The translations under genes and the position numbers were made by a program. From positions 1,488,001-1,552,000 of the forward strand of contig CP043547.1 in assembly GCA_009664345.1 (NCBI GenBank): a stretch of 64,000 nt of DNA, in the 5' to 3' direction. This document shows, piece by piece, positions 53,294 to 59,726 of the stretch. Under the pieces are notes generated by a model. It ran no database searches. It saw only the letters and a program-made list of their open reading frames with translations, and was not told the DNA's origin. Position 1 is the first letter of the stretch. The number at the start of each line of letters is the position of its first letter. The DNA comes from Planctomycetales bacterium 10988 (GTDB taxonomy: Bacteria > Planctomycetota > Planctomycetia > Pirellulales > Pb10988).

Positions 53294-54604
53294 ATGCAGG
53301 AACGTTACTTCGAACAACCTTATGAGTTTATTTCGCCTTATCGAAGAACGTTTTGGATTCGCTTGTTCACTCCGATTATTCGTTGGAAGTTGAAAGATGA
53401 ATTTCAAATCCACCATCTCGAATATCGAGGGTTAGAGCATCTGGAATCCCTCATTGAAAAAGATGCTGGGATTTTGCTGACTCCGAATCATAATCGCTTG
53501 GCCGATTCCCCGGTGCTGGGAATCCTTGGTCTTCGCGTCGATCGGTATTTACACTGGGTCGCCTCCTATCATCTTTTTAAACAAAGTCGCTTTCGCAAAT
53601 GGTTCCTCAAACGGATGGGGGCTTTTAGTATTCTCCGAGAAGGAACCGATCGCGAGGCCATAAAAGCTTGCGGGGAGATTTTGCAAACTCAGGATCGCCT
53701 GCTTAATATCTTTCCCGAAGGGACTTGGTTTCGTCAGAATGATCGCTTGGGCCCACTGCAAGATGGGGTCGCTTTTATCGTTCGCCAAACCTTACGCAAA
53801 GCAGAACGGCCCATATATATCGTTCCGATTGCCATTAAGTATTGGGTATTGAAAGACCCCACCGAAGAAATCAATCAACGGCTTTCCAAGCTTGAGCGGG
53901 GGCTCCATTGGGAACCGAAAACTTACCTCGATCCGGTTGATCGCATTGGCCGCATTTGCAATGCCTATCTCTCTGTCAAAGAAATTGAAACATTTGGCAA
54001 AGCCCATTCAGGTAGCCAAGACTTACGAATCGAGCAATTGGTTCAGAAAAAATTGTTTGAAATTGAAAAACGCTACTATGGCGAAGTTGGCGATGGGGCC
54101 TATCTGGCCAGGGTTCGTCGCTTACGTCAAAAGCTGGTGAAGATGCTCTGGGATGCGAATCTTGAACGAGCGGAAAAGAGCCGAGCGAAGGCAGACCTGA
54201 ACGATCTTCTTTTCTGTGAACTTGCCGCGGCCCATTCGGAAGCTTATCTGATTGAGAATCCAACTTATGAACGGATTGTGGAAGCAGTCCTTCGTTTGGA
54301 AGAATCGCTCTCCGACACGGAGGAACCGATTGTTCCGATGGGAGCCGTAGTTGCCATCGGAAAACCAATCCGTCCTGAAGAGTTTCCGCCGGCTGGGAGA
54401 AAAGAGCGGAAGCTAGGCGATCCCTTGATGAAAGAGCTTCGCTTTCAAATGGAAAAACTTTTACAGGAAACGGTTGAAGCCGGGCCACCGGAGTCTTGGA
54501 ATTGTCCAAAACCTAGAATCATCCCGGCACGCCCCGATCGCGAAGGGACCGATATTGATTCAGATATTGACGGGGCAATTTACGATCCGGCGACCTCATC
54601 TTGA
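53294..54604 (+). CDS. PlsC-type lysophospholipid acyltransferase with C-terminal extension
   Basis: 436 residues. The acyltransferase box NHNRLAD (His66, Asp71) and the FPEGTW motif (~140) define the PlsC/AGPAT fold, which acylates lysophosphatidate or similar acceptors at the inner membrane. The first ~245 residues cover the enzyme; the remaining ~190 are charged and helical (EIEKRYYGEVGDGAYLARVRRL) and not familiar. The 3' end overlaps the convergent small gene by 25 nt. Confidence 0.88.
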   Translation: MQERYFEQPYEFISPYRRTFWIRLFTPIIRWKLKDEFQIHHLEYRGLEHLESLIEKDAGILLTPNHNRLADSPVLGILGLRVDRYLHWVASYHLFKQSRFRKWFLKRMGAFSILREGTDREAIKACGEILQTQDRLLNIFPEGTWFRQNDRLGPLQDGVAFIVRQTLRKAERPIYIVPIAIKYWVLKDPTEEINQRLSKLERGLHWEPKTYLDPVDRIGRICNAYLSVKEIETFGKAHSGSQDLRIEQLVQKKLFEIEKRYYGEVGDGAYLARVRRLRQKLVKMLWDANLERAEKSRAKADLNDLLFCELAAAHSEAYLIENPTYERIVEAVLRLEESLSDTEEPIVPMGAVVAIGKPIRPEEFPPAGRKERKLGDPLMKELRFQMEKLLQETVEAGPPESWNCPKPRIIPARPDREGTDIDSDIDGAIYDPATSS

Positions 54605-55029
54605 GACATGGCTTCCCACCATCGCGGGAACGTTACAAAGCGATGAATCAGATTTTGCAATCCTTTTTTGCTCAGCGGCAAATGATAATTGAGTGCCCCG
54701 CCGCCCGATCCGGTATTTGGTTCAGAGATCGAGATTGTCAGTTGGAATGCCTCTTCTTGCTGCTGCACTTGCAATTGAACACTATTCCCGAGATCTGCGA
54801 GCGAGCATTCCTTGGCTTCTCCGGCGGCAAGCTGTTGCAACGACTGCTGAAAACCATCAATCGCATCCGTGCCCAGCCAAATATCAGTTCCTTCATAGCG
54901 AAACCTGCCGGAGCGGTGAGGAAGCTCCAGAATAAATAATGCTCGAAAAGTGGGAAAGCCTGGTTCGACTTCCAACGGGGCAATCGTGATCATGCTTTCC
55001 GTCATGCCATTTGCTTCATCTAGCCTCAT
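54580..55029 (-). CDS. Small uncharacterised protein, WapI/DUF6228-like pattern
   Basis: Up to 149 residues; starts at codon 9 or 13 are also possible. Pattern FRALFILELPHRSGRFRYEGTDIWLGTDAIDGFQQSLQQLAAG followed by a beta-rich half resembles small WapI/DUF6228-type proteins, some of which are immunity proteins, but no toxin gene is adjacent. It overlaps the end of the acyltransferase gene tail to tail. Assignment is weak. Confidence 0.5.
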   Translation of the reverse strand: MRLDEANGMTESMITIAPLEVEPGFPTFRALFILELPHRSGRFRYEGTDIWLGTDAIDGFQQSLQQLAAGEAKECSLADLGNSVQLQVQQQEEAFQLTISISEPNTGSGGGALNYHLPLSKKGLQNLIHRFVTFPRWWEAMSQDEVAGS

Positions 55030-55174: not shown

Positions 55175-56722
55175 TTATAATAAACCTTGTAAGATGAATT
55201 TTATCTGTTGTTGCGTGACCGGCTTCGGAAGGATCACTTCGCAGTCATAATTTTTGGGATCGAGCGAACGATTCACTTCACATTCTGTTAAGCCGATCAC
55301 CGGACCCAGATATCCATGAGAACGCATTCCGTTGAGTAAATCGGATTGTTGATAATGAAGAAACGTAAGGTTCACAAATACAAGTTTTATGGAACCTATT
55401 AACACATGATTCTTTTGGATGAACTGAAGTAAAGCATCACCCGAATCAAGTGTGACAATTTCGACCCCTTCTCCACGGAGATAAAAACTTAAAATCCGCT
55501 GACTTATAAAATCTTCGTCAGCCACTACAACAATTGGGCGATTCCCAGATTGTGAATTAATATATTCACGACTTGTTTGTAAGGAAGGATTGGCCACAGA
55601 AGGGAGATAAAATTGAAAGGTACTTCCCTTACCTTTCGAACTTTCCACATTTAAGAAACCACCAAGTTTTTCAGCTAAAAGTTTACAAATGGTTAAACCG
55701 AGCCCGCTCCCTTTTTCCAGGACGGTTCCATTTTGGTCGGAATGATTTAATTGTTGAAAAGGCTCAAAGATTTTGTCTTGATCTTCGACATCAAAACCGA
55801 TCCCACTATCAACCACTTCAAACTTTAAATATTCCGTGTTATCGAGCTCTGCTTTGGAAAGGTACGCCCGGACATAACCCTCTTGGGTAAATTTAATGGC
55901 ATTTCCAATCAGATTCACCAGGATTTGCCAAACCCGAGTTTTATCAACATGGATCACTTGTGGAATATTGTTGTCTACTTTAATTTCAATCGTAAGCCCT
56001 TTGGATTCTGCTTGCAAACGCAGTAACTCCGCAGCTTCCTGAAGGACCACTTTGGGCGAACATTCCATCGGATTGAAGCTGACTTGATTTGCTTTCAGTT
56101 GAGAAATACTTAACAAGTCTTGTAACAGATTCGAGACGTGAACCACGCTTTCTCGCATCAGCCGAATATCTTGAGAGAGGTCCGGATTCTTGACGACTTC
56201 TTCCTTTTTAATGGCTAAATCCAAGAGCCCGCCGATGGCGACAATGGGGTTTTTCAATTCATGGCTGATGGTGGCAATGAAGTCACTTTTAGAGCGATCT
56301 GCCGATTCTGCTTCCAGGCAGGCCCGGCGGAGTTCCGCTTCGGTTTGTTTTCGGCTGACATTGTAATGGATGCAACGAATCAGGGTTTGGGCATTGAAAT
56401 CACCTTTGACCAAGTAATCGGAGGCCCCCGCCTCCAGGGCTTCCATATCAAAGTCCGGATAACCTGTGAGCAGGATCATCGGTTCGGTCACGCCTTCCGC
56501 GATAGCTCGACGGACTAAAGAAATGCCGGTTTCCTTGCCTAATACTTGATCGATTAAGTAAATGTCGTAGTTCCGCGATCGCAACCGTTTTAGGGCTTCG
56601 GAATAGTCGCCTGTCCATTCTAGCTGAAGATGATTTCTAGGAATCCGTCGAATTAACTCACGAATAATGATAAATTCTTCCTGATCATCATCGACGACTA
56701 AGACTCGGACCTCAGGATTCAT
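55175..56722 (-). CDS. Hybrid histidine kinase: receiver - HisKA - HATPase - degenerate receiver
   Basis: 515 residues. N-terminal receiver (VLVVDDDQEEF, acceptor Asp in YLIDQVLGKETG, ILLTG, LVKGD), HisKA with the phospho-His in DFIATISHELKNP, then HATPase_c boxes (NLIGNAIKFTQEG, DSGIGFD, GSGLGLTICKLLAEKLGG). The C-terminal ~120 residues fold like a receiver, but the acceptor position reads FVNLTFLH with no Asp, so it should not be phosphorylated. It overlaps the upstream response regulator by ATGA, and forms the last step of the three-gene relay. Confidence 0.92.
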   Translation of the reverse strand: MNPEVRVLVVDDDQEEFIIIRELIRRIPRNHLQLEWTGDYSEALKRLRSRNYDIYLIDQVLGKETGISLVRRAIAEGVTEPMILLTGYPDFDMEALEAGASDYLVKGDFNAQTLIRCIHYNVSRKQTEAELRRACLEAESADRSKSDFIATISHELKNPIVAIGGLLDLAIKKEEVVKNPDLSQDIRLMRESVVHVSNLLQDLLSISQLKANQVSFNPMECSPKVVLQEAAELLRLQAESKGLTIEIKVDNNIPQVIHVDKTRVWQILVNLIGNAIKFTQEGYVRAYLSKAELDNTEYLKFEVVDSGIGFDVEDQDKIFEPFQQLNHSDQNGTVLEKGSGLGLTICKLLAEKLGGFLNVESSKGKGSTFQFYLPSVANPSLQTSREYINSQSGNRPIVVVADEDFISQRILSFYLRGEGVEIVTLDSGDALLQFIQKNHVLIGSIKLVFVNLTFLHYQQSDLLNGMRSHGYLGPVIGLTECEVNRSLDPKNYDCEVILPKPVTQQQIKFILQGLL

Positions 56723-57174
56723 TGATACCCCTCAACGGGTAAGGTTGCGGTTTGATACCAGAAATTCCAAATGTTTTTCAGTACCATCACTAACTCATCC
56801 ATGGAACCGCGTTTGGTGACAAATGAGTTGACACCTAGTTCATACATCCTATGGATATCATCGCTTCGATTCGAGGTGGTCAAGGCGATCACAGGCAAAA
56901 GTTTCAGGTCAGGATCCTCACGGATATCTTGAAGGACTTCTATCCCATTTTTACGTGGCATATTCAAATCCAACAAGATGATCCCCGGTCGAGGAGAGCT
57001 GGAAGGAAGTGCGAATCTTCCTTCCCTTCGTAAATATTCAAGCAATTCGACTCCGTCTTCGACAAAGCGAACGTCTTGCTCAATCCCGGCTCGTTTTAAG
57101 GCTTCCGAGAGCAGAAGCCGATCTTCCGCATCGTCGTCGACCATGAGGATAGGACCTTTGTCAGGCGCTTTCAT
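56719..57174 (-). CDS. Rcp1-like single-domain response regulator
   Basis: 151 residues. A lone receiver: LMVDDDAEDRLLL (acid pocket), LLDLNMPRKNGIEVL (acceptor Asp), ALTTSN (Thr) and FVTKRGS (Lys). No output domain. The pattern is that of Rcp1, the partner of phytochrome-type kinases, which it resembles in having an ethylene-receptor-like kinase as neighbour 14 nt upstream. Overlaps the hybrid kinase by 4 nt. Confidence 0.93.
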   Translation of the reverse strand: MKAPDKGPILMVDDDAEDRLLLSEALKRAGIEQDVRFVEDGVELLEYLRREGRFALPSSSPRPGIILLDLNMPRKNGIEVLQDIREDPDLKLLPVIALTTSNRSDDIHRMYELGVNSFVTKRGSMDELVMVLKNIWNFWYQTATLPVEGYQ

Positions 57175-57188
57175 GGGAGCTCCCTTTC

Positions 57189-59180
57189 TCAGCTATTTGA
57201 GTTGAAAATAATGTGAAAAGTTGCCCCTTCTCCAGGGGTGCCATTCGCTGTAATGGTACCCCCGTGTCGTTCGACGATCTTGCGGCAGAGAGCAAGTCCA
57301 ATCCCTGTGCCAGGATAATCCTGTCGTCGATGAAGCCGTTGAAAAATACGGAAAATACGCTCTTCATACTTTTCTTCAAATCCAATCCCATTGTCCTGAA
57401 CATCAATATGATATTTCTGATGAGGGGTCTCTTCCCCTTGAATCAAGGAGTGGCATTGAATCAAAATCATTGGATCTTTGTCAGTCGCGCGATATTTCAA
57501 GGCGTTGGATATGAGGTTTTGAAAAAGTTGATATAGTTGGGTCCGAACCCCAGGTATGGAGGGAAGCGGCTCTACCCGAACATGAGCATTACATTCTTGA
57601 ATACGGTTATCAAGGTCTTGTAAGACTTCCTCAACGATTTCATTGAGATCGACCAAGTTGAATTTATTCGCCTTGCGACCGATCTGAGCGAGTTGCAATA
57701 AGTCGGTGATCAAAGTATCCATTCGCTGCACGGCGGACTTGATACTTTCCAAGTATTGCGTGGAACTCCCCGTGAGTTGGTCTTTGGCCGCCTCACTTAA
57801 CAAATCGGAAAATGCCCAAACCTTCCGTAAAGGTTCCTTGAGATCGTGGGATGCTACGTAGGCGAATTCTTCTAACTCCTGATTAGAGCGTTCTAGCTCG
57901 TCCTGACTTTCCTTTAAATCTGTTAAGTCATGAGCGACTCCAACCCACCGGAGGAGTTCGGAGGATTCATCCAAAATTGGAAAGCGGCGGTCACGAATCC
58001 AGCGAAGCTGCCCACCAGGCTGACGAATGCTATAGACGACATCGATTTCCGACTTGCTCTGGCAACCTTCCTCTAAGGCGGTTTCGATGGATTCTCTTTC
58101 TTCCTGATTGATGGATTCTTTCCAGCGTTGTGGTTCCGAAACGAGGACTTCCGCCGAAACTCCCCAGATCCGAGAAATTGCCGGACTGATATACTCGAAG
58201 CTTTTCAGGTCCGGGGAGAGAACCCAAAACACATCCAAGATTTTTTCTGCCAACTCGCGAAAACGTTCCTCGCTGTGACGTAATTTTTCTTCCGCAAGCT
58301 TCCGAGGGGTGACATCTTGGATCACCGCTACGGCTCCTCGGATTTCCCCTTGTTCATCGCGCATGGTTTGTGCGTTGCTGTGAAGCCAACGTTCCTGCAC
58401 GGTGCCATTGCAACCTTTGAGAAGATACTCGATTTCATGGACTCGCTCACCGTGCAGGGCGGAATTCAACAAGTCCATTTGCTCAGCCGGCAGTCCCCAT
58501 TCCCCAGAGGAGCGACTTCTATTTTGAGGGGGGGCGGGTGGTTGATGCCCATTGGTTTCTTGAGAATGTCCATTGAGGCGGCTATCAAAAAAACGGTTGA
58601 CTGCAGGATTGGTCTGCATCACCATGCCTTGAGTATCTACTACCAACACCCCTTCTGGAAGACTGTCGAGAATACAGCTTAGCAGTGTTGCTTGTTCTCT
58701 GAGGGTTTCGGTTTGTTCGGCAACTCGATCTTCAAGATTTCGATTAAGCTCTTGTAATTTAAGTTCGGCTGCTTTCCGCTGTTCAATCTCTCTTTCAAGT
58801 TCTTCAGGCGTCCGCAACCGCAAGACGCGGGGGACGATCGGAATGAGGGCGATGACCGTTACCCAAGAGACGACCGCCGTGGTGAACTTCAAGAGCCCTG
58901 AAAGTCGATAAATGGGACTCCAAAAGATAATCGCTTCCACCAGATGGACCGACCCGCAGGAAAAGATAAAAGCGGAAAATAAACCAATCAGTCCGGGAAA
59001 CGGAATGAATTTCACTCGAAAGAGAAAATAGAGCAAAACACACGGAATGGTGGTATAGGCTCCGAAGGTGGCAATATCCGAGGTAATGTGAAGCCACCCC
59101 TCGAAATCGCTCCAATAGCCGCAATACCATCGAGGAGGGAAATCGGTCGTATCAAAGAATTTGTAGAAGTATTCCCACAT
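57189..59180 (-). CDS. Histidine kinase with ethylene-receptor-like (ETR1-type) membrane domain
   Basis: About 663 residues from ATG 59180; a TTG at 59240 adds 20 residues. Residues ~30-125 form three membrane helices with D35, Y42 and P46 in SDIATFGAYTTIP, and I72, C75 and H79 in FIFSCGSVH. Plant ETR1 has D25, Y32, P36, I62, C65 and H69, a constant offset of ten; Cys65/His69 hold the copper that binds ethylene. A coiled coil (EREIEQRKAAELKLQELN), two PAS domains, a HisKA (VASHDLKEPLRKV) and HATPase_c (NLISNALKYRA, DNGIGF, GTGIGLALCRKI) follow. Likely a copper-dependent gas sensor feeding the response regulator 14 nt downstream. The ATG has no SD; a small ORF ends 8 nt upstream. Confidence 0.88.
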   Translation of the reverse strand: MWEYFYKFFDTTDFPPRWYCGYWSDFEGWLHITSDIATFGAYTTIPCVLLYFLFRVKFIPFPGLIGLFSAFIFSCGSVHLVEAIIFWSPIYRLSGLLKFTTAVVSWVTVIALIPIVPRVLRLRTPEELEREIEQRKAAELKLQELNRNLEDRVAEQTETLREQATLLSCILDSLPEGVLVVDTQGMVMQTNPAVNRFFDSRLNGHSQETNGHQPPAPPQNRSRSSGEWGLPAEQMDLLNSALHGERVHEIEYLLKGCNGTVQERWLHSNAQTMRDEQGEIRGAVAVIQDVTPRKLAEEKLRHSEERFRELAEKILDVFWVLSPDLKSFEYISPAISRIWGVSAEVLVSEPQRWKESINQEERESIETALEEGCQSKSEIDVVYSIRQPGGQLRWIRDRRFPILDESSELLRWVGVAHDLTDLKESQDELERSNQELEEFAYVASHDLKEPLRKVWAFSDLLSEAAKDQLTGSSTQYLESIKSAVQRMDTLITDLLQLAQIGRKANKFNLVDLNEIVEEVLQDLDNRIQECNAHVRVEPLPSIPGVRTQLYQLFQNLISNALKYRATDKDPMILIQCHSLIQGEETPHQKYHIDVQDNGIGFEEKYEERIFRIFQRLHRRQDYPGTGIGLALCRKIVERHGGTITANGTPGEGATFHIIFNSNS

Positions 59181-59445: not shown

Positions 59446-59726
59446 TTCCGCTGAAACCCGGTTTTCCGTTAAATTACTGATGAATCTTCGTTAAAGGCCA
59501 ATCGTTTTCCAAAAGAAGAGATGGAGAAAATGGAATCCAATGGGATCAGCGATCAACGGAATAGAGATTGGATTAAAGGTGATCCATTTTAATGTAATAG
59601 ACAGTATGTCTATAGAGTGTCAAATGTATTTTGAGGAAATGACGAAAATTTTTTTGAAAAGTCTAAATGATGAAGACCTGGGTGGGAAAACAGAGAGGCT
59701 CAGCCGGTGTTATTCGCTGAGCGCAT
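59446..59726. other. AT-rich intergenic region upstream of the kinase operon
   Basis: Between the kinase operon and the terminator of the protease gene. Very AT-rich around 59570-59660. No convincing ORF or RNA gene. Confidence 0.4.

What the first reader, a model, noticed from the sequence alone, without database searches (positions are those of the whole stretch)
57189..59180. Ethylene-receptor-type copper site in a planctomycete histidine kinase
D35, Y42, P46, I72, C75 and H79 keep the exact spacing of ETR1 D25, Y32, P36, I62, C65 and H69 in three predicted membrane helices, followed by PAS-PAS-HisKA-HATPase. ETR1-like receptors are known in plants and cyanobacteria (SynEtr1). A planctomycete copy coupled to an Rcp1-like regulator and a hybrid kinase suggests a gas- or copper-sensing phosphorelay.
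Basis: partly seen in the sequence, partly recalled or inferred. Interest (0 to 1): 0.8.

Follow-up and report, generated by a model that had tools for sequence, protein, structure and literature searches.

The report
Planctomycete ethylene-receptor-type sensor kinase
This bacterium carries a membrane sensor whose copper-binding pocket matches that of plant ethylene receptors and which sits beside two likely signalling partners; such sensors turn out to be common in planctomycetes, but what they sense has not been tested.

Summary
The gene lies on the minus strand (59180..57189, 663 aa). Residues 28-122 match Pfam ETR1_N at 105.5 bits (cut-off 27). All seven residues needed for ethylene binding in Arabidopsis ETR1 are kept with a constant offset of +10, and the signalling lysine K91 as K98. 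An AlphaFold model (pLDDT 97) shows three long helices and a signalling helix; PAS-PAS-HisKA-HATPase follows. A single-receiver Rcp1-like regulator starts 14 nt downstream and overlaps a REC-kinase gene by 4 nt.

It is not unique. ETR1_N occurs in 28 of 294 genomes sampled from the phylum and 48 of 196 from the order, including cultured genera. The adjacent regulator recurs beside 17 of 25 kinases of this type, against 1 of 48 of the other type. What may be new is the clade: planctomycete-type domains (RWxCGxW) are split (100/98 support) from the set holding receptors shown to bind ethylene. I found no paper on them in the open library. The same genome carries a degenerate second copy whose copper cysteine is tyrosine, the change in the plant etr1-1 mutant. 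Cu(I)/ethylene sensing is the best reading but is inferred, not shown.

The parts
57189..59180 (-). EBD-PAS-PAS-HisKA-HATPase sensor histidine kinase, 663 aa (ATG at 59180; stop ends at 57189)
   Evidence: ORF and translation; Pfam domains; catalytic boxes intact, H445 in the H-box
58815..59099 (-). ETR1_N ethylene-binding-type transmembrane domain, residues 28-122: three helices (25-55, 62-84, 91-120) with D35, Y42, I45, P46, I72, C75, H79, K98
   Evidence: Pfam PF25487 105.5 bits; alignment to AtETR1; AlphaFold2 pLDDT 97
58944..58958 (-). Putative Cu(I) ligands C75 and H79 (codons 75-79) in helix 2
   Evidence: C75 kept in 86 of 87 and H79 in 87 of 87 family members
59088..59132 (-). Bacterial N-terminal motif R17-W-x-C20-G-x-W23...G28-W-x-H31; C20 and H31 are also kept in the cyanobacterial and proteobacterial members read
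   Evidence: C20 85/87, W23 87/87, H31 79/87
56719..57174 (-). Rcp1-like single-domain response regulator, 151 aa; starts 14 nt after the kinase stop
   Evidence: Pfam Response_reg 74.3 bits; acidic pocket, D69, T99, K121 kept; same neighbour in 17 of 25 comparable loci
55175..56722 (-). REC-HisKA-HATPase hybrid kinase with a degenerate C-terminal receiver (Asn451 where the phospho-acceptor Asp belongs), 515 aa; overlaps the regulator gene by 4 nt
   Evidence: Pfam; motif positions; similar third genes in L060, L065, L096, L085. The C-terminal receiver is read from sequence; Pfam did not call it

Best explanation
It is a membrane-bound sensor histidine kinase with an ETR1-type sensor domain. 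A Cu(I) ion is held by C75 and H79 on helix 2, probably within a homodimer, and a small unsaturated gas, most likely ethylene, binds to that copper. D35 (helix 1) and its partner K98 (helix 3) couple the change at the copper to the signalling helix 125-159, which shifts the PAS-PAS-kinase output; in plants, ethylene inhibits autophosphorylation. Phosphate passes from H445 to D69 of the adjacent Rcp1-like regulator and probably also to the receiver (D58) of the third protein, which gates that protein's own kinase. Shown here: the domain family, the residues, the helix layout, intact kinase and receiver residues, and the conserved gene order. Inferred: copper occupancy, the ligand, the sign of the output, the phosphotransfer routes and the physiological response.
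For: Pfam ETR1_N 105.5 bits. 7 of 7 binding residues plus K91. Near-invariance of C75 and H79 over 87 domains. When Cys or His is lost, D, Y or P is usually lost too: 5 of 6 against 7 of 99, Fisher p = 5e-5, with the caveat that low-scoring copies were picked on purpose and relatedness is not corrected. High-confidence helix model. Adjacent Rcp1-like regulator in 17 of 25 loci of this kinase type against 1 of 48 of the other type. Azospirillum AzoEtr1 binds ethylene, keeps the same residues and is followed by an overlapping single-domain regulator (PMC11819568). Cys65/His69 coordination and the Asp-Lys coupling are reviewed in PMC13012798.
Against: No member of the planctomycete-type clade was found to have been tested; the tree separates it from the tested receptors with 100/98 support. 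No solved structure of the fold exists to compare against. The genome encodes copper-translocating ATPases, but so do the control genomes, so this says nothing specific. No final output gene is visible in the window.
Confidence: 0.7

Rival explanations
1. The domain holds Cu(I) by the same site but reports copper availability, or redox state through Cu(I)/Cys chemistry, rather than a gas.
For: Copper ligands are the most strictly kept residues. C20 and H31, kept in both bacterial groups (H31 not in AtETR1), could form a second thiol or metal feature.
Against: D35, Y42, I45, P46 and I72, known for ethylene binding rather than for copper alone, are kept as well. ETR1 holds Cu(I) with a femtomolar dissociation constant (PMC6586836), which suits a cofactor better than a tunable sensor. 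No copper-handling gene lies in the triad.
Confidence: 0.13
2. The site binds a different small pi-ligand (carbon monoxide, acetylene, longer alkenes), with specificity shifted in the planctomycete-type clade.
For: The clade is well separated from tested receptors and has clade-wide changes next to the site (RWxCGxW entry, HLxEAxIFW after H79).
Against: Every residue known to be needed for ethylene binding is the same.
Confidence: 0.12
3. The transmembrane domain is only a membrane anchor or dimer scaffold that has lost sensing.
For: Degenerate copies do exist in planctomycetes, one of them in this very genome.
Against: This copy keeps all seven residues plus Lys and scores 105.5 bits; the genome's degenerate copy (50.7-56.5 bits) shows what a relaxed one looks like.
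Confidence: 0.05

Closest known systems
AzoEtr1 / AzoRR-etr1 of Azospirillum brasilense (PMC11819568)
   Same: N-terminal ethylene-binding domain with the same residues (even the same numbers, D35, C75, H79, K98), PAS and histidine kinase, and an adjacent single-domain response regulator without output domain
   Different: AzoEtr1 has one PAS, no third REC-kinase gene is reported, and its domain is about 37% identical and in the other clade (PHGxC type); ethylene binding is shown there, not here
SynEtr1 of Synechocystis, with slr1213 and slr1214
   Same: ETR1-type domain on a histidine kinase acting through response regulators
   Different: SynEtr1 is also a light receptor with a phytochrome-like domain; here PAS-PAS and no such domain
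Arabidopsis ETR1
   Same: Seven binding residues and K91; three helices; histidine kinase output
   Different: Plant receptors have a GAF domain and signal through CTR1; the N-terminal motif differs
Cph1/Rcp1-type kinase-regulator pairs
   Same: H-box of the SHDLKEP type and a neighbouring Rcp1-like single-domain regulator
   Different: Input is an ETR1-type membrane domain, not a phytochrome (comparison to Cph1 from general knowledge)

Membership tests
ETR1-type ethylene-binding domain (Pfam PF25487) | Profile score above the curated cut-off | tested here: met
   105.5 bits against 27, residues 28-122 covering profile 3-97 of 97
ETR1-type ethylene-binding domain (Pfam PF25487) | Seven residues required for ethylene binding (D25, Y32, I35, P36, I62, C65, H69) | tested here: met
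   D35, Y42, I45, P46, I72, C75, H79
ETR1-type ethylene-binding domain (Pfam PF25487) | Helix-3 lysine coupled to the aspartate (K91) | tested here: met
   K98 aligned; kept in 83 of 87
ETR1-type ethylene-binding domain (Pfam PF25487) | Three transmembrane helices | tested here: met
   AlphaFold2 helices 25-55, 62-84, 91-120, pLDDT 97; hydropathy peaks
Ethylene receptor (function) | One Cu(I) per monomer held by Cys and His | not testable with these tools
   Only residue identity and same-face geometry can be seen; model coordinates are not exposed
Ethylene receptor (function) | Saturable ethylene binding and ethylene-dependent output | not testable with these tools
   Needs a binding assay
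Plant ETR1/ERS1 receptors | GAF domain after the transmembrane domain | tested here: not met
   PAS_4 and PAS_3 instead, no GAF hit
SynEtr1-type light/ethylene receptor | Phytochrome-like (GAF) domain | tested here: not met
   No such hit
Histidine kinase with Rcp1-like partner | Intact H, N, G1, F, G2 boxes and a neighbouring single-domain receiver with Asp, Thr and Lys | tested here: met
   phosphotransfer itself not tested

The most novel reading that the evidence does not exclude
The planctomycete-type (RWxCGxW) domains form a second major branch of copper-based ETR1-type sensors, spread over Planctomycetota, Verrucomicrobiota, Bacteroidota and others. They would sense a ligand, or set a threshold, different from the plant/cyanobacterial branch, and some genomes, including this one, would pair an intact copy with a naturally copper-site-dead copy (C65Y type) that could act as a constitutive or ligand-blind partner.
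Probability: 0.2. Interest if true: 0.65.

Novelty: new member of a known kind. Interest (0 to 1): 0.38.

Why it matters
If the domain binds ethylene, ethylene sensing is widespread in planctomycetes, bacteria common on algae and in water and soil, and the plant-type gas receptor would be one branch of a much larger bacterial family. The well-split untested clade, and the natural etr1-1-like copy in the same genome, give direct material for asking what makes this copper site select ethylene.

Tried and rejected
(1) Solved structures: no sequence match and no meaningful fold match, as expected since no structure of this transmembrane domain is known. (2) A perfect palindrome ATAGACA-N3-TGTCTAT at 59597-59613, upstream of the gene, looked like an operator. 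The only other exact copy in the genome lies in a terminator-like hairpin between convergent genes, so I dropped it. (3) Promoter and terminator scans gave no more than shuffled sequence; no Rfam hit. (4) A copper ATPase as support for copper delivery: present, but found in all 14 controls too. (5) No full-length match was found in 38 relatives; the two hits at E <= 1e-60 cover only the sensor half or only the kinase half.

Full report
What is there. On the minus strand, 59180..57189 encodes 663 aa. Pfam finds ETR1_N (residues 28-122, 105.5 bits, cut-off 27), PAS_4, PAS_3, HisKA and HATPase_c, in that order. Aligned to AtETR1 (sequence written from memory; its residue numbers agree with the published ones), all seven residues required for ethylene binding and the coupling lysine are kept: D35, Y42, I45, P46, I72, C75, H79, K98. 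AlphaFold2 on an alignment of 87 family members gives mean pLDDT 97 and helices 25-55, 62-84, 91-120 and a signalling helix 125-159. C75 and H79 are one turn apart on a continuous helix, so they face the same way; D35, Y42 and P46 likewise share one face of helix 1. Model coordinates are not exposed, so contacts between helices, and the dimer, were not tested.

Neighbours. Fourteen bases downstream starts a 151-aa single-domain receiver of the Rcp1 kind with its acidic pocket, D69, T99 and K121. Its stop overlaps the start of a 515-aa REC-HisKA-HATPase protein whose C-terminal receiver has Asn in place of the phospho-acceptor. Of 87 EBD proteins read the same way with enough flanking DNA (the window included), those whose catalytic part is most like this one have an adjacent Rcp1-like regulator in 17 of 25 cases, against 1 of 48 for those whose kinase is of the other type, with or without a fused receiver; 14 had no classifiable kinase. 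A third REC protein follows in several; in L060, L065, L096 and L085 it is also a REC-kinase. The triad is therefore a recurrent module, not an accident of this genome. AzoEtr1 of Azospirillum, a proven ethylene receptor, likewise has an overlapping single-domain regulator (PMC11819568).

Distribution. ETR1_N was found in 28 of 294 genomes sampled across the phylum and 48 of 196 in the order (46 over the cut-off), in none of 14 control genomes. Named loci include Gimesia MAGs, Blastopirellula marina DSM 3645, Rhodopirellula baltica, R. rubra, R. sallentina and Zavarzinella formosa DSM 19928, plus Verrucomicrobiota, Bacteroidota, Hydrogenedentota, Omnitrophota and Myxococcota records. Among plasmids, the relatives are proteobacterial and cyanobacterial at below 60% identity. 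No full-length match was found in 38 relatives, which fits sensor and kinase halves being recombined.

Position in the family. A tree of 96 domains (141 columns, so most inner forks are weak) separates a set holding AtETR1, AzoEtr1, cyanobacterial and proteobacterial domains and four planctomycete ones from the other 83, which include the window, at 100/98. The two sets differ in the N-terminal motif (PHGxC..W in bacteria of the first set, RWxCGxW in the second) but share the copper and ethylene residues. Receptors known to bind ethylene (AtETR1, AzoEtr1) fall in the first set; SynEtr1 itself was not in the tree, but other cyanobacterial domains were. Searches of the open-access library for ethylene receptors together with planctomycetes found nothing relevant; subscription papers, including the review of ethylene receptors in non-plant species cited in PMC11819568, could not be read, so a mention of planctomycetes there is possible.

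Constraint. Over 87 domains C75 is kept in 86 and H79 in 87. The one domain without the Cys is the second copy in this same genome (L032, 1192 aa, four or more PAS, HisKA_3; next to a NarL-like regulator): D25 kept, Y32C, I35L, P36T, I62L, C65Y, H69 kept. C65Y is, from general knowledge, the Arabidopsis etr1-1 change that abolishes ethylene binding; an orchid C65Y receptor is used as a mutant in PMC9011138. Other degenerate copies were found by reading low-scoring hits (L170, L173, L174, L176, L186). Loss of Cys or His goes with loss of D, Y or P (5 of 6 against 7 of 99, Fisher p = 5e-5), with the caveat that these copies were chosen for low score and relatedness is not corrected. Against this background the window copy's complete site argues for an active sensor.

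Mechanism. Established for ETR1: Cu(I) held by Cys65 and His69, His-Cu distance rising on ethylene binding, and an Asp-Lys pair tuning affinity and coupling (PMC13012798; copper stoichiometry 1:1 in PMC6586836). By homology the same events should shift the signalling helix and the PAS-PAS kinase, then the Rcp1-like regulator and the REC-kinase. The final output is unknown: neither partner has a DNA-binding domain.

Verdict. The interest lies in the untested clade and in the paired intact and C65Y copies. Copper and ethylene binding are inferences until measured.

Noticed in passing
L032:5324-8902 minus (G000:C1 about 2700323-2703901): Second ETR1_N protein in the same genome, 1192 aa, multi-PAS and HisKA_3, with the copper cysteine replaced by tyrosine (C65Y as in plant etr1-1) and Y32C, P36T; a NarL-type regulator gene lies just upstream on the same strand.
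   Followed up: partly
L170, L173, L174, L176, L186: Other planctomycete ETR1_N domains with lost copper ligands (C to F or S, H to E, F, Y or C), suggesting repeated independent loss.
   Followed up: partly
L062:7228-7905 minus and L089:5998-6618 plus; also L051, L057: The ETR1_N domain is encoded as a separate small protein whose gene overlaps that of a PAS-kinase, either a split sensor or frameshifts in assemblies; seen in two Phycisphaera-group genomes.
   Followed up: no
window 59088-59132: C20 and H31 just before helix 1 are nearly invariant in bacterial members, while AtETR1 has no histidine at the latter position; role unknown (disulfide, second metal site or membrane entry).
   Followed up: partly
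window 59597-59613: Perfect 7-bp inverted repeat ATAGACA-N3-TGTCTAT in the 860-bp gap upstream; the only other exact genomic copy is a terminator-like hairpin.
   Followed up: yes
window 54580-55029: Short minus-strand gene downstream of the triad with a weak hit to the WapI immunity-like family (29.9 bits, cut-off 27).
   Followed up: no
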